From an uncultured Veillonellaceae bacterium (GTDB lineage: Bacteria; Bacillota; Negativicutes; Selenomonadales; Selenomonadaceae): DNA of 64,000 bases. Numbering within the stretch: position 1 is the first letter of the stretch; each line of letters starts with the position of its first letter. Shown here one piece after another: positions 5,875-16,540 of this stretch. The notes beneath the pieces were generated by a model that searched no databases, had not been told where the DNA came from, and saw only the letters and a list, made by a program, of their open reading frames with translations. Made by a program: the position numbers and the translations under genes. The stretch covers positions 1-64,000 of the forward strand of contig OMWS01000001.1 in NCBI GenBank assembly GCA_900314825.1, written 5' to 3'.

Positions 5875-7152
5875 ATGGAAGTCTTGGCCGGTATTGTCTT
5901 CATCCTCATGTACGTCGTCATCGTCTCGGAGAAAATCCACCGGACGGTCGCGGCCGTGCTCGGCGCGCTCGTCATGCTGTACGCGGGCGTCTTGAGCATG
6001 GACACGGCGCTGCATCACGTCGATTTCAACACGCTCGGCTTGCTCGTCGGCATGATGGTGCTCGTCGGCGTCACGAGCCACACGGGCCTCTTTGATTTCG
6101 TGGCTGTCTGGGCCGCGCAAAAGGCAAAGGCCGAGCCGCGCAAGATACTCATCTACCTCGGGCTCATCACGGCCGTGTTCTCGGGCTTCCTCGACAACGT
6201 GACGACGGTCCTCCTCATGGTGCCCGTGACATTCTCCATCACGCAGAAGCTCCGCATCTCGCCGATGCCGTTCCTCCTGACGCAGATCATCGCGTCGAAC
6301 ATCGGCGGCACGGCGACGCTCATCGGCGACCCGCCAAACATCATGATCGGCAGCGCGGCGCCGGAGCTCACGTTCATGGCCTTCATCGAAAACCTCGCGC
6401 CCATCGCGTTCTTCGACCTCTTCGTCGTCATCTTCATCATGGAGGCGTTGTATCGCAAACAGCTCCAGACGAAGCCGGAACTCCAGGCCGAGGTCATGGC
6501 CATGGATGCGGGGCAGTGCATCAAAGATCACCGCTTGCTCGTGAAATCGCTGTTCGTGCTTGCACTCACGGTGCTTGGATTCTTCACGCACTCGATGCTC
6601 GGGCTCGAGTCCGCGCTCATCGCGCTCGGCGGCGGCTTCCTGCTGCTGCTCCTCGCGGGCGGCAGCGCGCACCTCGTCGAGCATGCGATGAAGTCCGTCG
6701 AGTGGGCGACGATCTTCTTCTTCATCGGCCTTTTCATCGCCGTCGGCGGCCTCGTCGAGACTGGCATCATCCGCGATCTCGCGACGATGGCCATCGAGCT
6801 GACGGGCGGCGATGTCACGACGACGTCGCTCCTCGTGCTCTGGCTCTCGGCCATCGTTTCGTCCGTGCTCGACAATATCCCATTCGTCGCGACGATGATC
6901 CCGCTCATCCAGAACATGGGCGCCATGGGCGTCTCGAATCTCGACCCCGTCTGGTGGAGCCTCGCGCTCGGCGCCTGCCTCGGCGGCAACGGCACGCTCG
7001 TTGGCGCGTCGGCGAATCTCATCGTCGCTGGCCTCGCGGCCGAACGCGGCGTCAAGATCACGTTCATCCGCTACCTCTGGATCGGTTTCCCCATCATGCT
7101 GCTGACGATTCTGCTCTCGACCGTGTACGTGTACGTGCGCTATCTCATGTAA
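5875..7152 (+). CDS. ArsB/NhaD (SLC13/IT superfamily) membrane transporter
   Basis: A 425-residue polytopic inner-membrane protein with about eleven hydrophobic segments and a short cytoplasmic loop around residues 195-225. It shows the duplicated signature of the ArsB/NhaD (P-protein) group: FSGFLDNVTTVLLMVPVT plus NIGGTATLIGDPPN in the first half, and SSVLDNIPFVATMIPL plus GGNGTLVGASAN in the second. The family exports arsenite or exchanges Na+/H+ or organic anions; the substrate cannot be told from sequence. No ars regulator or reductase is nearby, so arsenite is not favoured. The start has aggagg ten bases upstream. Flanked by its own promoter/leader and a strong terminator: monocistronic. 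Confidence 0.85.
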   Translation: MEVLAGIVFILMYVVIVSEKIHRTVAAVLGALVMLYAGVLSMDTALHHVDFNTLGLLVGMMVLVGVTSHTGLFDFVAVWAAQKAKAEPRKILIYLGLITAVFSGFLDNVTTVLLMVPVTFSITQKLRISPMPFLLTQIIASNIGGTATLIGDPPNIMIGSAAPELTFMAFIENLAPIAFFDLFVVIFIMEALYRKQLQTKPELQAEVMAMDAGQCIKDHRLLVKSLFVLALTVLGFFTHSMLGLESALIALGGGFLLLLLAGGSAHLVEHAMKSVEWATIFFFIGLFIAVGGLVETGIIRDLATMAIELTGGDVTTTSLLVLWLSAIVSSVLDNIPFVATMIPLIQNMGAMGVSNLDPVWWSLALGACLGGNGTLVGASANLIVAGLAAERGVKITFIRYLWIGFPIMLLTILLSTVYVYVRYLM

Positions 7153-7440: not shown

Positions 7441-7493
7441 AAAGGCAGGGCGTATGAGTTTTCGTACGAATGCATCATGAAGGGAGGACGAGC

Positions 7494-9077
7494 ATGCTAG
7501 AGACTATTATAGAGAAGACGCAAAAATTTATCGCTAGTATGCCGAAGGAAAAACGGAAGGGCATCGGACAGTTTTTTACGAGCATGCAGACGGCACGTTT
7601 TATGGCACGATTGTTCGATGTACCGGCAAAATCTTCTCTGCATATTCTTGATGCAGGATCCGGGTCAGGGATTCTCTCGACGGCGCTTCTGGAACGGTTA
7701 GATGATATCCGCAGCATCCATACTGTGCATCTTGTCTGTTATGAAACAGATGAAAACATTTTGCCATTATTGAACGAGAATTTGTCAGAAATTTGTCGGC
7801 AAGTGCATTTTGAACTTTCGTATGACATCCGAAAAGAGAATTATATTTTGTCACAGGAGTTCGCGTTTAAGGGATGGGAGGAACCGGAACGATACGACCT
7901 GTCGATTGGCAATCCACCATATAAAAAAATCGGAAAGGATGCACCGGAAGCGCTTGCGATGCCGGAGGTCTGCCATGGCGCGCCGAATCTTTATTTCTTG
8001 TTTCTGGCCATGTCGTTGTTTGATCTGCAGGCAGGCGGCGAAATGGTCTATATTGTTCCGCGCTCTTGGACATCGGGGGCATATTTTCGTGCATTCCGTG
8101 CGTTTTTATTCGCGCATGGCTCATTGGAGCATTTGCACCTTTTTGTCAGTCGCGACAAAGTGTTCTCGTCTGAGAGTGTTCTGCAGGAAACGATGATTCT
8201 TAAAGTACGCCGGGGGGAGCAAACATCCCGCGTGACAATTTCATCAAGCGGAACGAGCGATTTTTCGGATTTGCGGGAGCTCACAATGCCGATGGAAACC
8301 GTGGTTTCCGGGAAAGAACAGTATGTCTATCTTGTAACAACGGAAGAAGAAGCGGAAAATCTGCGTATCATGCAGTCGCTTCCTTGCACGTTGCCAGAGA
8401 TTGGCTTTCGCATGAAGACGGGGCTGACCGTTGATTTTCGGGAGCGGGATTCTCTGTTGGCCGAAGCGGAAGATGATGCTGTGCCGATGTTCTTTGCGCA
8501 ACATATTCGCGATGGCCGCGTCGTTCATTCGATTGGGAAATTTGGCGAATGGGTGCGACGGGGACGCCCAGCCCTTTTACAGAAGAACTGCAATTATCTT
8601 TTTGTAAAACGATTCACAGCGAAGGAAGAGTCACGCCGGTTGCAATGCGGCATTTATCTTGCGGATGAGTTCTCTGCATATGATGTCATCAGCACACAAA
8701 ATAAATTGAATTTTATTGATGAAGAAAATCATGCGATGACACGTGCGGAAGCGTATGGTTTGTATACATTGCTCAATAGCACTCTGTACGATCGATTCTA
8801 TCGCATCCTCAACGGTTCGACGCAAGTAAATTCTACAGAAGTCAATCAAATGCCAATGCCAGTGAGGAAAACGGTCGAGCGGCTGGGTGAAAAATTAGAG
8901 GGTATGAAAGATTTGTCAGTAAACGTGTGCGATGCACTATTGGAGGAGGCATTGTTCCATGCCGAAATTACCAGAGGCAAAAAAGATTCTCAAGGCCATC
9001 GGGATGCCGGAGAAACAGCAGAACGATATGTGCGCCCGGACGCTCTTGGCGTTGGCGCATCTCACGCAGCAGGATGA
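7494..9077 (+). CDS. Type II N6-adenine DNA methyltransferase (BsuBI/PstI-type system)
   Basis: A 527-residue methyltransferase. The SAM-binding motif I is LDAGSGSGILSTALLE (about residue 50), and the catalytic N6-adenine motif IV is IGNPPYKKIG (about 140). The C-terminal third is a target-recognition region. The pairing with a BsuBI/PstI-type endonuclease suggests methylation of a CTGCAG-like site; this is inferred, not seen. The start at 7494 has gggagg seven bases upstream. The last ~40 residues overlap the endonuclease gene by 119 bp and read as a low-complexity out-of-frame copy of it, so the ancestral stop was probably earlier. Base composition is lower in GC than the flanks, which suggests horizontal acquisition. 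Confidence 0.9.
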   Translation: MLETIIEKTQKFIASMPKEKRKGIGQFFTSMQTARFMARLFDVPAKSSLHILDAGSGSGILSTALLERLDDIRSIHTVHLVCYETDENILPLLNENLSEICRQVHFELSYDIRKENYILSQEFAFKGWEEPERYDLSIGNPPYKKIGKDAPEALAMPEVCHGAPNLYFLFLAMSLFDLQAGGEMVYIVPRSWTSGAYFRAFRAFLFAHGSLEHLHLFVSRDKVFSSESVLQETMILKVRRGEQTSRVTISSSGTSDFSDLRELTMPMETVVSGKEQYVYLVTTEEEAENLRIMQSLPCTLPEIGFRMKTGLTVDFRERDSLLAEAEDDAVPMFFAQHIRDGRVVHSIGKFGEWVRRGRPALLQKNCNYLFVKRFTAKEESRRLQCGIYLADEFSAYDVISTQNKLNFIDEENHAMTRAEAYGLYTLLNSTLYDRFYRILNGSTQVNSTEVNQMPMPVRKTVERLGEKLEGMKDLSVNVCDALLEEALFHAEITRGKKDSQGHRDAGETAERYVRPDALGVGASHAAG

Positions 9078-9882
9078 ATGGAGAAAAGCTGCTTCGGATG
9101 AGCCGATGCGGACGGTGGACATCATGGAATTCATGAAGAAATACTATCGTAAGGCATATAAGCCGAATACGCGAGAATCTGTCCGAAAGCAAGCACTCCA
9201 ACCATTTTTGCAGGCGGCACTCGTGGAAAATATTCGTCGCGCAACAAACGATGGATCGGGCGGATATGTTTTGACGGCGGAATTTCTCAGCCTGTTACGG
9301 ACGTATCAAACAGAAAAATGGGATGGGGCGTTGCAATCATTTTTGGAATGTCACGACTCTCTGGTTGAGAAGTATCAGACGAAGCGCGAATCCGAGCGGT
9401 TGCCTGTCCAGGTGAATGGTCGGGGCTTGCGCTTATCACGCGGAAAACATAATGCGTTGCAGAAAGCGATTCTCGAAGAATTCGCGTCACGATTTGTTCC
9501 AAAAGCAAAATGCCTTTATGTCGGCGACACGATAAAGCGCGATCTCGTGTTGGATGAAGACGCGTTGCAGAAGTTTCATATCACGATCACGCAGCATGAC
9601 AAGATGCCAGACGTGATCCTTTACTCTGAAGAGAAAAATTGGCTGTTCTTTATCGAAGCTGTCACCTCTGTCGGTCCTATGAGTCCGAAGCGGATTTTGG
9701 AGCTTCGCGAAATGACGAGGGCTACAGAGCGGGGAATCGTTTATGTCACGGCTTTTCCAGATCGGGCAACGTACAAGAAATTTGTGGCTGATCTAGCCTG
9801 GGAAACAGAAGTCTGGTTGGCGGAAGAGCCAGAACATATGATTCATTTGAATGGAAGCCGCTTTATCGGACCATATCGATGA
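8959..9882 (+). CDS. BsuBI/PstI-family type II restriction endonuclease
   Basis: A 307-residue endonuclease. An N-terminal helical domain with winged-helix character (about 1-125) carries KYYRKAYKPNTRESVRKQ, and the catalytic C-terminal domain (about 160-300) has LYVGDTIKRDLVLD, HDKMPDVILY and FFIEAVTSVGPMSPKR, the hallmark stretch of the BsuBI/PstI family with its D...E-type metal-binding residues. These enzymes cut CTGCAG. The start at 8959 has ggaggagg eleven bases upstream. It overlaps the methyltransferase by 119 bp in another frame. Together they form a two-gene type II system without an obvious controller gene. Confidence 0.9.
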   Translation: MPKLPEAKKILKAIGMPEKQQNDMCARTLLALAHLTQQDEWRKAASDEPMRTVDIMEFMKKYYRKAYKPNTRESVRKQALQPFLQAALVENIRRATNDGSGGYVLTAEFLSLLRTYQTEKWDGALQSFLECHDSLVEKYQTKRESERLPVQVNGRGLRLSRGKHNALQKAILEEFASRFVPKAKCLYVGDTIKRDLVLDEDALQKFHITITQHDKMPDVILYSEEKNWLFFIEAVTSVGPMSPKRILELREMTRATERGIVYVTAFPDRATYKKFVADLAWETEVWLAEEPEHMIHLNGSRFIGPYR

Positions 9883-9913: not shown

Positions 9914-9942
9914 TTGACACATTTCCGTGACAGGTGTATTGT
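9914..9942 (+). promoter_or_regulatory. Promoter of the T-box leader
   Basis: A consensus TTGACA (9914-9919), 17-base spacer and TATTGT (9937-9942) lie upstream of the T-box element. Confidence 0.75.
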
Positions 9943-9949
9943 ATACCCA

Positions 9950-10275
9950 TCGATGCGATACAGATACGTAAATCTGTAAAGCGCGATACACCATACGAAT
10001 ACATCCGATGATGGGAAAGAGTACCTTCCAGTCGAAACTTTCAGAGAGCCATCGTTTGCTGAAAGATGGCAGCGGAGACGGGAGCGAAAATCCTCCTGGA
10101 GGAGCGCGGCTGAACAATCCGGTAAGCCAAGACGTCCGCCCTACGTTACAGGGGACGCGCATGGTAGTGCGTTGGTGAGTGCTCATGGCATCGTTGCCGT
10201 GGGAATTTGGGTGGTAACACGGAAATAAACGTCCGTCCCTTTTGAACGTTCAAAAGGGACGGATGTTTTTATTTT
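9950..10275 (+). ncRNA. T-box leader, probable isoleucine specifier
   Basis: The 5' leader of the MFS gene has T-box landmarks in order. The stem I k-turn/S-turn is gatgatgggaaagagtac (10007-10024), followed by the apical agagagcc (10043-10050). The specifier region is gcgaaaatcctcctggag, with ATC at 10090-10092. The T-box sequence gggtggtaacacgg (10209-10222) contains TGGT, which pairs with an ACCA tRNA end (discriminator A). A strong terminator stem (10233-10262, ccgtcccttttgaac paired with its complement) and T-run follow. Uncharged tRNA binding would favour the antiterminator and allow transcription. The specifier reading ATC (Ile) is from alignment by eye; a shifted reading such as CTC (Leu) is possible. 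Confidence 0.85.
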
Positions 10276-10321
10276 TCATCATTTATTTTTTCATTCATTT
10301 CATTTTCTAGGAGGAATCATC

Positions 10322-11641
10322 ATGGAACAGCAGCTCGACCTGCAAGCCCTCAAACGAAAACGGGACCTTCGCATCATCTTCCCGGTCTTCCTCGTCTCGA
10401 TCATCGCCTGCCTCGACCGCGTGAACATCTCGTACGCGGCGTTGACGATGAAAGCCGATCTCGGCTGGCTCACGCCGGAAATCTATGGCGCGGGCGCCGG
10501 CATCTTCTTCGCCGGCTATCTGCTGCTCGAGATCCCGGGCTCGCTCGTCGCGGCGAAGTTCTCGGCGACGAAATGGATCGCGCGCATCATGTTCACGTGG
10601 GGCCTTGTCTGCGTGCTCATGGCGTTCATGCAGACGCAAGCGGAATTTTACCTCTATCGTTTCTTGCTCGGTGCTTCGGAAGCGAGCCTCTATCCTGTCA
10701 TCTACTCCGTGCTGTTCCCGCGCTGGTTCACGGGCCGCGAGCGCGCCCGCGCTACGAGCCTGATGCTCGGGTCGCTGCTCCTTGCGAACATCATCGGCGC
10801 GCCGCTTTCGGGCGTGCTGCTGCAGACGTCGTTCTTCGGTATGCACGGCTGGCAGGAGCTCTTCATCATTGAAGCCGTGCCGGCGCTGCTGTTCTCCGTC
10901 CTGTTCTTCTTTGGCGTGAAAGATCGTCCGGATCAGGTTGGCTGGCTCACGGACGCGGAAAAAGCGTATCTCACGAAATCGTATGAAGAAGAAAAAGCCG
11001 CCATGCAGAACAAAAAGAAATACACGGTGCTGCAGGCGTTCAAAGATCCGAAAGTCCTCCGTCTCTGCCTCATCTATTTCCTCTGGGTTGTCGGTTTCTG
11101 GGGCTTCTATTTCTGGATGCCGACCGTGCTCAAGAGCTTATCGGGCTGGTCGACGCAGCTCCTCGGCGGCGCCATCGCCATCCCGATGACGGTCGCGCTC
11201 CTCGTGCAGTGCGTCATCGGCTGGTCGTCGTCGCGCACGGGCGACAAAGTCTGGCACGTCTCGCTGACGCTCATGGTCGGCGCGTTCGGCCTCGCACTTT
11301 CGCCGTTTGCGACGGACACGACGGTCGCGCTCGTCCTCATCTGCCTCTCGGCCATCGGCATCCATGCCGCGATGGGCGTCTGGTGGACGATCCCGACGAC
11401 GTTCCTCACGGGCCCTGCGGCAGCCGGTTCCGTCGCACTCATCAATTCGTGCGGCAACCTCGGCGGCTGGGTCGGCCCGTACATGATGGGCTGGATCAAG
11501 ACGAACACGGGCGCGTTCGACCTCGGCTACTTCATCATGGGCGGCATGATGTTCGCGGCAGCGCTGCTCGTGCTCACGATCAAATACGGCTTCAGCTTCT
11601 CGCACAAACACGAAGAAGAAGCGGCCGTAGTGGAAAACTAA
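10322..11641 (+). CDS. MFS transporter, ACS (anion:cation symporter)-like
   Basis: A 439-residue major facilitator with 12 predicted membrane segments. Segment 1 carries the ACS signature ACLDRVNISYAALTM, with the conserved DR.N, and the loop 2-3 region and LYRFLLGASEASLYP match the hexuronate/tartrate/phthalate branch (also called YfaV/ExuT-like). Known members import organic acids; the natural substrate here is unknown. The T-box leader upstream ties expression to an aminoacyl-tRNA pool, which is unusual for this branch and suggests an amino acid, or a keto- or hydroxy-acid precursor of one, as the substrate. RBS aggagg precedes ATG 10322. A terminator follows, so the gene is monocistronic. 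Confidence 0.85.
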   Translation: MEQQLDLQALKRKRDLRIIFPVFLVSIIACLDRVNISYAALTMKADLGWLTPEIYGAGAGIFFAGYLLLEIPGSLVAAKFSATKWIARIMFTWGLVCVLMAFMQTQAEFYLYRFLLGASEASLYPVIYSVLFPRWFTGRERARATSLMLGSLLLANIIGAPLSGVLLQTSFFGMHGWQELFIIEAVPALLFSVLFFFGVKDRPDQVGWLTDAEKAYLTKSYEEEKAAMQNKKKYTVLQAFKDPKVLRLCLIYFLWVVGFWGFYFWMPTVLKSLSGWSTQLLGGAIAIPMTVALLVQCVIGWSSSRTGDKVWHVSLTLMVGAFGLALSPFATDTTVALVLICLSAIGIHAAMGVWWTIPTTFLTGPAAAGSVALINSCGNLGGWVGPYMMGWIKTNTGAFDLGYFIMGGMMFAAALLVLTIKYGFSFSHKHEEEAAVVEN

Positions 11642-11671
11642 GGACATCGTAGCAACTCATTTTATAGAAGG

Positions 11672-11709
11672 GAACTCGCGGGCGCGATAGCGTTCGCGAG
11701 TTCTTTTTA
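11672..11709 (+). terminator. Terminator after the MFS gene
   Basis: A 9-bp perfect stem gaactcgcg / cgcgagttc with a 14-base loop runs into ttttta. Confidence 0.85.
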
Positions 11710-11793
11710 TCGAAAAGAGAATTTTTATGGGAAAAAAGAAGGAATTTTGCGAAAAGGGGCGAAACTACATAGGAGAAAGAATGGGGGGAAACT

Positions 11794-11821
11794 TTCACAT
11801 ACGGTAGAAGTAAACTATGAT
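11794..11821 (+). promoter_or_regulatory. Possible promoter of the chemoreceptor gene
   Basis: TTCACA (11794-11799) and TATGAT (11816-11821) have a 16-base spacer, about 29 bases before the start codon. No convincing sigma-28 site was seen. Confidence 0.35.
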
Positions 11822-11849
11822 GTCCAGTGTACAGAGGGGGAACCAATTT

Positions 11850-13646
11850 ATGGAATTATCATCCATGAAGACACGACTGATCGCAGCGATCAGCGGCGTG
11901 TCACTCGCATCGACCATCCTGATCGGCGCTTTTTTCATCTTTGAGACCGTCAAGGAAAACGAAGCGAGCATCGCGAGCTATCGCCAGGATCTCGAGTCGA
12001 ATGTCGAGACGCAGCTCAAGGAAGAGACGCAAGTCGCAGTCAGCATCCTCGACGAATACAACAAAAGGGCGCAGGCCGGCGAGATGCCGATCGAGCAGGC
12101 GAAGAAGGAAGCGGCCGACCGCGTGCGCGACCTCCGCTATGACAACGGCAAAGGCTATTTTTGGATCGACACGAAAGAGGGCGTCAACGTCGTCCTCCTC
12201 GGCCGTGACGTCGAGGGCAAGAGCCGCATCGATCTCGTCGACCCGAACGGCGTCCATTTCATCCAGGAAATGATCAAGAACGGCTTGCAGGAGGGCGGCG
12301 GCTACACCGACCTCGAGTTTGCGAAGCCGGGCGAGACGGAGCCGTTGCCGAAGCGCAACTACACGGTGCTGTATGCGCCGTTCAACTGGGTCATCGGCAC
12401 GGGCGTCTGGATCGATGACATCGACACGGCCGTCGCTGCGCGCACGGAAATCTGCGATGCGAAGCTCCGCTCGCAGATCGTGACGTCGCTCATCGTCATG
12501 GTCGTCATCCAGCTCATCTTCATCGCGTTTGCGCGCTACATCGGTTCGAACATCGCCGGACCGATCCTCAAGGTCACGAAGCGCTTGGAAGTCATCGGCA
12601 CGGGCGACTTCACGCTCAGCTCGCAGGATGCGGCCGAGCTCGACAGCCTCGCTGCGCGCCCCGACGAAATCGGCAAGATGGCGCACGCCATGAAGGACAT
12701 GAATGAAAAAGTCCGCGAGCTCATGCGCGATGTCGCGCAGACGGCGGAATACCTCGCGGCGGCCTCGGAAGAGCTCACGTCGACGGCAGACCAGGCCGCC
12801 GAGGTCAGCCAGTCCATCGCTGATTCCGTCGTGAACGTCGCCGGCTCGTGCAGCGAGCAGTTCACGGACGTCGAGACGGCGAACGAGCACACGCAGAAGC
12901 TCACGGAGAACATGGAGTCGTTCCGCCAGAACCTCGACAATGCCGGCAAGAAGGTCGACGAGACGAGCGCCGTCGCGGCCAAGGGCGGCGAGGACGTCAA
13001 GACGGCCGTCACGGGCATGCAGTCCATCGAGAAGAACGTCGGCCACATCGCGGAGATCATCGAAGGCCTCGGCGAGAACAGCAAGGAGATCGGCGCTATC
13101 GTCGCGACGATTTCGGAGATCGCCGACCAGACGAACCTCCTCGCGCTGAACGCCGCCATCGAGGCCGCGCGCGCAGGCGAGCATGGCCGCGGGTTCTCCG
13201 TCGTCGCGGACGAAGTCCGCAAGCTCGCCGAGCAGTCGCAGGAGGCTGCCGGCGAAATCTCGAACCGCATCGGCAAGATCCAGCAGTCGACGGACGAAGC
13301 GGTCGAGGCGATGCATGCCGGCCTCGCGGAGGTCATGAACGGCACGAAGACCGTGCAGTCGACGGGCAGCTCGTTCCAGGGCATCGTCAGCATGGTCGGC
13401 GAAGTCGCGACGAATTCGAATGCCATGGTCGGTTCCGTCCAAGTGCTCACGTCGAGCATCGAGGAGATCAGCCACGCCATCGAGCAGATCAACGAGAAGA
13501 GCCGCGCCGTCGCCGACGAAGCGCAGACCGTCTCGGCTTCGACGGAAGAAGAAACGGCCTCCATGCACGAGATTGCTGACGCGAGCCGCAAGCTCGCCGA
13601 GCAGGCGCAAGACTTGCAGAACGCGATTGCCGTGTTCAAGATTTAA
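11850..13646 (+). CDS. Methyl-accepting chemotaxis protein with single Cache domain
   Basis: A 598-residue chemoreceptor. Membrane segment 1 is at about residues 8-30. The periplasmic single-Cache (sCache_2) domain (about 35-200) has [14 protein letters not shown] and [13 protein letters not shown]. Membrane segment 2 is at about 205-230, then HAMP (about 232-285) and the cytoplasmic signalling domain with its hairpin tip [22 protein letters not shown]. The tip binds CheW and CheA, whose genes lie at 57-60 kb. sCache_2 receptors often sense small carboxylates; the ligand here is not predictable. No C-terminal pentapeptide tether is present. The start at 11850 has gggg about nine bases upstream. 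It is probably co-transcribed with the small gene 30 bases downstream. Confidence 0.93.
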
Positions 13647-15202: not shown

Positions 15203-15218
15203 AAATTTCGTTAATATA

Positions 15219-15561
15219 AGTAGTCAAGACAATCGCGGCTGCCGAATGGCAGATGAGGAAAGTCCGGGCTCCGCAGGGCAGTGTGCTGGACAACATCCAG
15301 CGGGGGCGACCCCAGGGACAGTGCCATAGAAAAGGAGACCGCCAGCGTTCGCCTGGCAAGGGTGGAAAGGTGCGGCAAGAGCGCACCAGCGGGCAGGTGA
15401 CTGTCCGGCTTGGTAAACCCCACACGGAGCAAGACCAAATAGGGAAGGGTTGAGGCGGCCCGCCGACCTTCCGGGTAGCGTCGCTTGAGACGTGCGGCAA
15501 CGCACGCCCTAGATAAATGATTGTCGCCGCGCGAGCGGTACAGAACTCGGCTTATTGACTG
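15219..15561 (+). ncRNA. rnpB: RNase P RNA, catalytic subunit (class A-like)
   Basis: The universally conserved cores are present: gaggaaagtccgggctccgc near the 5' end (CR I), agggtggaaaggtgcggcaag with the following agcgcaccagcgg (P11-P12 region), cggcttggtaaaccccac (P15 region) and the 3' agataaatgattgtcgccgc (CR V). The ends pair (agtcaagacaatc with gattgtc and cttattgact). This ribozyme trims the 5' leader of pre-tRNAs together with RnpA. It has its own promoter and terminator. The exact ends are approximate by a few bases. Confidence 0.96.
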
Positions 15562-15582
15562 CTTGTATTCATCGAAAAACGG

Positions 15583-15704: not shown

Positions 15705-15860
15705 GGGCGTTATATAGGAAAGCCGAATCCAGCCCAGGAGCGGGGGAACCAAATGATTTTGGGGTGAACGCATCCACCGGGATATCTTGCGGTATAACGG
15801 TGGGAGCGCGGGTGGTCTTCTCTACCCGAACCCGGCAGCTAACCTCGTAGGCGAACAGAG
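15705..15860 (+). ncRNA. c-di-AMP riboswitch (ydaO-yuaA type)
   Basis: The leader has the ydaO/yuaA consensus in order: agccgaatccagccc, cgggggaacca, ttggggtgaa, ggtataacggtggg, then the highly characteristic ctacccgaacccggcagct and aacctcgtaggcg. It ends 15 bases before the NlpC/P60 start. Members of this class shut off downstream genes, commonly cell-wall hydrolases and K+ or osmolyte transporters, when c-di-AMP is high. A separate terminator is not obvious; the final helix lies next to the ribosome site gagagaggag, so control of translation is possible. Confidence 0.92.
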
Positions 15861-15874
15861 AGAGGAGTGGCTTT

Positions 15875-16540
15875 TTGAGTAAAGCGCTGCGTGTCATCAC
15901 GCTATCCACGATCCTGCTGGTCTGGCTCACTGCCATCTGCGGGGCTTCGGCCTTCCGTATGGGTGACCAGGGCAGCGATGTAGCAGAGATCCAAGGGCAA
16001 TTGGCCAGTCTCGGCTACGATGTCGCGGCCGATGGGGATTTCGGTCCTGCCACGGCTGAGGCGGTAAAAGCATTCCAGGTCGCGAGAGGTCTCGATGCAG
16101 ACGGCCTCGTCGGCCCCTCCACGTACACGGCTCTCCTTGGGAAGGCCATGCCGGAGGTCAGCCGCGGGTCGAACGCCATCGGGCGCCGCGTCGTCGCGAG
16201 CTCGATGCAGTACCTCGGTGTGCCGTACGTCTTCGGAGGCACGACGCCGAGCGGTTTCGACTGCTCGGGCTATGTGCGCTACGTCTTTGCAAATGCAGGC
16301 ATCTACCTGCCGCGCACGGCGGATGCACAGTATGAGTGCGGCTACGCCGTCTCGACGTCCAAACTCGTGCCGGGCGATCTCGTCTTCTTCTCCACGTATG
16401 AAGCGGGCCCGTCGCACGTCGGCATCTATCTCGGAGATGGCAATTTCATCAATGCGTCTTCGAGCCAGGGCGTTTCCATCGCGTCACTGTACAGCTCCTA
16501 TTGGGGCTCGTGCTACATCGGCGCGCGCCGCGTCATGTGA
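15875..16540 (+). CDS. Exported NlpC/P60 peptidoglycan hydrolase
   Basis: A 221-residue exported protein with a TTG start (gagagaggag lies upstream). A signal peptide (about residues 1-26) ends ICGASA. A PG_binding_1 domain follows (about 28-90, GSDVAEIQGQLASLGYDV and GPATAEAVKAFQ). The C-terminal NlpC/P60 domain (about 103-221) has its catalytic cysteine in FDCSGYVRYVF (near 130) and histidine in GPSHVGIYLGDG (near 177). It should cleave peptide bonds in the peptidoglycan stem in the periplasm. Control by the c-di-AMP riboswitch upstream fits the known link of this second messenger to wall homeostasis. It is followed by its own terminator. Confidence 0.93.
   Translation: MSKALRVITLSTILLVWLTAICGASAFRMGDQGSDVAEIQGQLASLGYDVAADGDFGPATAEAVKAFQVARGLDADGLVGPSTYTALLGKAMPEVSRGSNAIGRRVVASSMQYLGVPYVFGGTTPSGFDCSGYVRYVFANAGIYLPRTADAQYECGYAVSTSKLVPGDLVFFSTYEAGPSHVGIYLGDGNFINASSSQGVSIASLYSSYWGSCYIGARRVM

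What the first reader, a model, noticed from the sequence alone, without database searches (positions are those of the whole stretch)
9950..11641. T-box leader, probably isoleucine-specific, on an ACS-type MFS transporter
Seen: stem I landmarks, agagagcc, a specifier region with ATC, the T-box gggtggtaacacgg and an overlapping terminator. Known: T-boxes sense uncharged tRNA and usually control aminoacyl-tRNA synthetase or amino-acid genes. TGGT requires a discriminator A, consistent with tRNA-Ile or tRNA-Leu. The downstream gene belongs to a branch known for organic-acid symport (hexuronate, tartrate). Inference: this transporter imports an amino acid or a branched-chain keto- or hydroxy-acid, which would be an undescribed activity for this branch. 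CodY, the other branched-chain amino acid sensor, is encoded 18 kb away.
Basis: partly seen in the sequence, partly recalled or inferred. Interest (0 to 1): 0.7.

Follow-up and report, generated by a model that had tools for sequence, protein, structure and literature searches.

The report
Isoleucine T-box controlling a carboxylate transporter
In rumen and gut Selenomonas-type bacteria, an RNA switch that senses uncharged isoleucine tRNA controls a membrane transporter from a family known for importing organic acids; the pairing is conserved across the group, so the transporter probably brings in isoleucine or a close carboxylate relative, although its substrate is untested.

Summary
Window 9999-10243 is a complete T-box leader (Rfam RF00230, 130.4 bits, E 1e-28), the best-scoring of ten in this genome. 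It has a promoter upstream, mutually exclusive antiterminator and terminator folds, and one downstream gene (MFS, 10322-11641) that ends at its own terminator.

The specifier is AUC (isoleucine). The same register gives the expected amino acid for the genome's other T-boxes, including ileS (AUC).

The leader-gene pair is conserved: 28 of 30 homologues in named genomes (62-96% identical) carry a T-box, AUC in all 27 read. Carriers group together in the transporter tree; the two exceptions branch just outside. Stem pairs covary strongly. In two relatives the ilvC operon also has an AUC T-box.

The protein is SLC17/ACS-type. It keeps DgoT's carboxylate- and proton-binding residues but has hydrophobic ones where DgoT binds sugar hydroxyls. 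The likeliest role is uptake of isoleucine (or branched-chain amino acids), next a hydrophobic precursor acid; sequence evidence does not decide. The host makes isoleucine itself. The CodY link is not supported.

This is a well-conserved new member of a known kind; the open point is the substrate.

The parts
9914..9942 (+). sigma-70-type promoter TTGACA-17-TATTGT
   Evidence: consensus scan, 10 of 12 matches; a TTGACA-TAtxxT pair sits at a similar place in nearly all orthologous leaders
9999..10243 (+). T-box leader (stem I to antiterminator)
   Evidence: RF00230, 130.4 bits, full model; covariation on 23 leaders
10090..10092 (+). specifier codon AUC (isoleucine)
   Evidence: covariance-model register; invariant in 23 aligned leaders; register checked on the genome's other T-boxes
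10209..10239 (+). antiterminator with T-box sequence GGGUGGUAACACGG; UGGU at 10212-10215
10227..10268 (+). intrinsic terminator, 19 pairs, 5' arm shared with the antiterminator
10310..10314 (+). ribosome-binding site GGAGG
   Evidence: read directly
10322..11641 (+). MFS transporter of SLC17/ACS type, 439 aa
   Evidence: MFS_1 E 1e-38; TIGR00893 and HpaX below cut-off; sialin, DgoT and VGLUT2 folds
11667..11708 (+). hairpin with T-rich 3' arm, likely terminator of the one-gene transcript
   Evidence: fold of 11650-11725, -34.7 kcal/mol

Best explanation
A transcription-terminating T-box senses uncharged tRNA-Ile(GAU). When isoleucine runs short, the tRNA pairs with AUC in stem I and, by its 3' end, with UGGU in the antiterminator; the terminator cannot form and the MFS gene is transcribed. 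The product is most likely a proton-coupled importer of isoleucine (or branched-chain amino acids in general), or failing that of a close hydrophobic carboxylate that the cell turns into isoleucine. The RNA part is shown by sequence and covariation; the direction of regulation follows from established T-box knowledge; substrate, proton coupling and direction of transport are inferred.
For: T-box at 130.4 bits. AUC register calibrated on nine other T-boxes of the genome, ileS included, and on two relatives. T-box upstream of the gene in 28 of 30 homologues from named genomes and in 17 of 17 orthologs of whole-genome relatives, overlapping sets. T-box carriers form one group in the tree. ilvC operon also under an AUC T-box in G013 and Megasphaera; in G013 the MFS leader is nearest to the ilvC leader; ilvC-ilvB next to the MFS gene in L047. 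Carboxylate and proton residues of DgoT conserved, hydroxyl-binding residues replaced by L152, Y252, G352. Lysine T-box on an MFS permease is precedent (PMC2494555).
Against: The host has ilvA, ilvB, ilvC and BrnQ, so need for this importer is not obvious. The pocket residues are shared with T-box-free homologues and in part with distant paralogs, so they do not single out isoleucine. Residue matching to DgoT rests on about 18% identity. tRNA-Ile of the host was not found in the draft. Leaders of Pectinatus and G028 have UGGC, which pairs less well with the usual discriminator A.
Confidence: 0.8

Rival explanations
1. The transporter imports an isoleucine precursor rather than the amino acid: 2-oxobutyrate, 3-methyl-2-oxopentanoate or its hydroxy acid, or 2-methylbutyrate, which is present in rumen fluid (from memory). 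The T-box switches it on because the precursor feeds isoleucine synthesis.
For: Characterised SLC17/ACS relatives in bacteria move organic acids. Pocket keeps the carboxyl site and is otherwise hydrophobic. The gene occurs with ilvC in every genome checked, and ilvC carries the same kind of T-box in two relatives.
Against: T-box-controlled transporters described so far are annotated as amino-acid or amino-acid-precursor carriers, most as amino-acid carriers (PMC2494555). The 2-ketoisovalerate oxidoreductase model that a 2-methylbutyrate route might use is over its cut-off in none of the genomes with the gene, a weak point because other enzymes could serve.
Confidence: 0.28
2. The link is loose: the T-box was captured by a general organic-acid transporter, and expression on isoleucine shortage is a side effect or serves another need, such as carbon supply or chemotaxis-linked uptake.
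For: Host is an isoleucine prototroph with BrnQ. A Cache-domain chemoreceptor gene follows the MFS gene in the window and in some homologous loci.
Against: The pairing has been kept across genera with AUC unchanged. The other T-boxes read in three genomes fit the pathway of their gene where it could be named. The chemoreceptor lies behind a hairpin terminator.
Confidence: 0.15
3. The specifier is in another frame (for example UCC/UCA, serine, or AAU, asparagine) and the gene serves another amino acid.
For: Alternative frames are known for some T-boxes (PMC7778990).
Against: The register is right for ileS, valS, leuA, pheS, thrS, trpS and aroF in the same genome. AUC is invariant while the bases on both sides vary.
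Confidence: 0.02

Closest known systems
T-box leaders of ileS and ilv operons (RF00230, isoleucine class)
   Same: Same architecture, same AUC specifier, transcription-terminator type
   Different: Target is an SLC17/ACS-type MFS transporter instead of a synthetase, a biosynthetic operon or BrnQ/ABC uptake
Lysine T-box on an MFS permease in Bacillus (Wels et al. 2008, PMC2494555)
   Same: T-box controlling an MFS transporter, used to infer its substrate
   Different: Other amino acid; relation of that MFS member to the SLC17/ACS branch was not tested here
DgoT, E. coli D-galactonate:proton symporter
   Same: Fold; D46, R47, Y79, R126, E133 and N393 conserved as D32, R33, Y66, R113, E120 and N375
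   Different: Hydroxyl-binding Q164, Q264, S370 replaced by L152, Y252, G352; about 18% identity
Sialin and VGLUT2 (SLC17)
   Same: Best Foldseek matches (sialin) and best PDB sequence match (VGLUT2, E 6e-12)
   Different: Animal lysosomal and vesicular carriers; no branched-chain amino acid role known to me

Membership tests
T-box leader (RF00230) | Full-length match to the covariance model above the gathering score | tested here: met
   130.4 bits against 93, model 1-219
T-box leader (RF00230) | Stem I with specifier codon in the model register | tested here: met
   AUC at 10090-10092; stem I pairs covary in 23 leaders
T-box leader (RF00230) | Antiterminator with UGGN bulge, exclusive with a terminator | tested here: met
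   UGGU at 10212-10215; terminator 10227-10268 shares the 5' arm
T-box leader (RF00230) | Response to uncharged cognate tRNA | not testable with these tools
   Needs a reporter or in-vitro transcription
Isoleucine class of T-boxes | AUC specifier and discriminator of the host's tRNA-Ile able to pair with UGGU | tested here: inconclusive
   AUC met; host tRNA-Ile not found in the draft; the Megasphaera tRNA-Ile(GAU) has ACCA, i.e. A, which fits
SLC17/ACS transporter family | MFS fold nearest to solved SLC17 members | tested here: met
   Sialin, DgoT, VGLUT2 head the Foldseek list; mean pLDDT 78.5; by VIA-align they tie with other MFS members
SLC17/ACS transporter family | TM1 Arg for the substrate carboxyl and TM4 Glu for protons | tested here: met
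   R33 and E120 invariant in the close homologues, aligned to DgoT R47 and E133
D-galactonate transporter subfamily (TIGR00893) and HpaX (TIGR02332) | Score above the curated cut-off | tested here: not met
   270.6 against 395 and 198.5 against 615.4 bits
CodY regulon | CodY box near the promoter | tested here: not met
   No site with 3 or fewer mismatches in the promoter-leader region; three in the window, no more than chance

The most novel reading that the evidence does not exclude
A bacterial SLC17/ACS-type transporter clade dedicated to isoleucine or to branched-chain 2-oxo or 2-hydroxy acids, which acquired an ilv-type T-box once in the Selenomonadaceae and passed with it as a unit to Megasphaera; such an activity would be new for this branch in bacteria.
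Probability: 0.6. Interest if true: 0.6.

Novelty: new member of a known kind. Interest (0 to 1): 0.42.

Why it matters
The T-box gives a testable substrate for a transporter clade whose sequence alone says only 'organic acid'. If it moves isoleucine or its acids, it adds a carrier type to branched-chain amino acid uptake in common rumen and gut Selenomonadales, and a bacterial SLC17 relative with a small hydrophobic substrate for comparison with sialin and the VGLUTs.

Tried and rejected
Auxotrophy as the reason for the transporter: every genome with a close ortholog has ilvC, so rejected. Replacement of BrnQ: 14 of the 17 relatives with the gene also have BrnQ, and no T-box core was seen by pattern in the 20 BrnQ loci fetched, so no clean displacement. 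CodY co-control: no box. 2-ketoisovalerate oxidoreductase profile: over cut-off only in genomes without the gene, little information. Host tRNA-Ile discriminator: two searches found no tRNA-Ile in the draft. Literature: no paper in the held library was found that describes an isoleucine T-box on an ACS-type MFS or T-boxes of Selenomonas transporters. Vitreschak et al. 2008 is not held and TBDB tables could not be read, so an earlier mention cannot be excluded.

Full report
What is there. A whole-window Rfam scan places a full-length T-box leader at 9999-10243 on the + strand, 130.4 bits against a gathering score of 93. A promoter TTGACA-17-TATTGT lies at 9914-9942. The T-box sequence GGGUGGUAACACGG is at 10209-10222, and its antiterminator shares bases with a 19-bp terminator at 10227-10268, -29.0 kcal/mol on its own. 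The gene runs from 10322 to 11641 and is followed by a strong hairpin at 11667-11708, so the transcript probably carries one gene. The genome (3.36 Mb, 137 contigs; nearest relatives are rumen Selenomonas-type genomes) has ten T-boxes and this is the best-scoring one.

Specificity. The covariance-model register puts AUC (10090-10092) in the specifier position. The same register in the other nine T-boxes gives UAC for the DAHP synthase gene, GUC for valS, CUC for leuA, UUC for pheS, ACC for thrS, UGG for trpS and for the trp genes, AUC for ileS, and GCU for an Lrp-type regulator with an aminotransferase. In G013 (Megamonas-type) and G016 (matching Mitsuokella multacida) the specifier regions again fit the targets that could be named, including AUC for ileS in both and for ilvC in G013. 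TBDB reports AUC as 99% of Ile specifiers (PMC7778990). Isoleucine is therefore well supported and leucine is not.

Conservation. A scan of 84,980 species genomes found 30 close homologues of the MFS protein, all in Selenomonas-, Mitsuokella-, Pectinatus-, Megamonas- or Megasphaera-type records; the scan reaches close relatives only. In 28 a T-box lies directly upstream: 18 of the 20 loci scanned with Rfam pass the gathering score, the others show the T-box core by pattern. AUC was read in 27; L063 was not read separately. A second, overlapping set of whole genomes gave a T-box upstream in 17 of 17 orthologs at 73% identity or more. The exceptions are Selenomonas artemidis (68%) and a second copy in a Megamonas assembly (62%). 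In a maximum-likelihood tree the T-box carriers form one group (91/97), with the exceptions just outside and Megasphaera nested among Selenomonadaceae. The simplest reading is one acquisition and a later joint transfer to Megasphaera; support for some inner forks is moderate. On 23 leaders the Rfam structure shows 173 double-changed cells against 56 in shuffles and 17-40 in slid controls.

Link to isoleucine metabolism. In G013 and in Megasphaera the ilvC operon also has an AUC T-box. In G013 the MFS leader resembles the ilvC leader more than any other leader of that genome (72% identity, score 236; next 176). In one Selenomonadaceae genome (L047) ilvC and ilvB follow the MFS gene, though with a promoter-like sequence of their own between. 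Against a simple story, the host keeps ilvA, ilvB, ilvC and BrnQ, and most relatives with the gene also have BrnQ.

The transporter. Pfam gives MFS_1; NCBIfam gives D-galactonate transporter (TIGR00893) and HpaX, both below cut-off. The nearest solved sequences are VGLUT2 and VGLUT3; sialin, DgoT and VGLUT2 head the Foldseek list, although VIA-align ranks several other MFS members equally high. Aligned to E. coli K-12 DgoT, the residues that in DgoT bind the substrate carboxyl (R47, Y79) or carry protons (D46, E133), and N393, are conserved as R33, Y66, D32, E120 and N375 in the close homologues. The DgoT residues that bind hydroxyls, Q164, Q264 and S370, are here L152, Y252 and G352. A small hydrophobic carboxylate therefore fits better than a polyhydroxy sugar acid. 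The same holds for the T-box-free homologues and in part for more distant paralogs, so the pocket alone does not single out isoleucine. The residue equivalence rests on an alignment at about 18% identity, anchored by invariant motifs.

Mechanism. Shown: leader, specifier, exclusive folds, conservation, one gene before the next terminator. From established knowledge of T-boxes: uncharged tRNA-Ile stabilises the antiterminator and turns the gene on. Inferred: import, proton coupling and substrate. I put about 0.55 on isoleucine or branched-chain amino acids, about 0.28 on a precursor acid and the rest on other substrates. The confidence of 0.8 in the best explanation covers the broad statement (isoleucine T-box; importer of isoleucine or of an acid turned into it), which includes the first rival as its second branch.

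Novelty. T-box-regulated transporters are known, and an MFS member with a lysine T-box was reported (PMC2494555). I found no description of an isoleucine T-box on an SLC17/ACS-type MFS, but older surveys and the TBDB tables could not be read. It is a new member of a known kind, with an untested and possibly new transport activity.

Noticed in passing
window 7470-9882: Restriction-modification pair (Eco57I-like methylase and BsuBI/PstI-type endonuclease) directly upstream of the promoter. In L041 and L044 the CitMHS-type gene (window 5875-7152) is instead the direct neighbour of the T-box-MFS unit, so the pair looks inserted here.
   Followed up: partly
window 9961-9981; L045, L048, L050, L140: GTAA-type repeats between the -10 box and the T-box; in S. 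ruminantium L050 a 16-bp inverted repeat (ACAACTTTACATACGA / TCGTATGTAAAGTTGT) spans the promoter, and similar repeats precede the ilvC T-box of G013. Possible operator of a second regulator.
   Followed up: partly
L057, L068, L021 leaders: Pectinatus and G028 leaders have UGGC instead of UGGU in the antiterminator bulge, although the specifier is still AUC.
   Followed up: no
window 15711-15869: c-di-AMP riboswitch (86.5 bits) ahead of an NlpC/P60-type cell-wall hydrolase gene at 15875; RNase P RNA lies just upstream at 15217-15569.
   Followed up: no
window 11817-13646; L042, L044, L070: A Cache-domain chemoreceptor gene follows the MFS gene here and in L042 and L044; a chemoreceptor-sized ORF also follows the T-box-free homologue in L070.
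   Followed up: no
L003 (G000:C25:12972-13181) and L152 (G013): A T-box with specifier GCU (alanine) precedes an Lrp/AsnC-type regulator gene and an aminotransferase gene; a GCU T-box also precedes a similar aminotransferase gene in G013.
   Followed up: no
L097:3999-4907: A 302-aa gene after leuA under the leucine T-box looks AzlC-like by eye (branched-chain amino acid export family); NCBIfam gave no hit.
   Followed up: no
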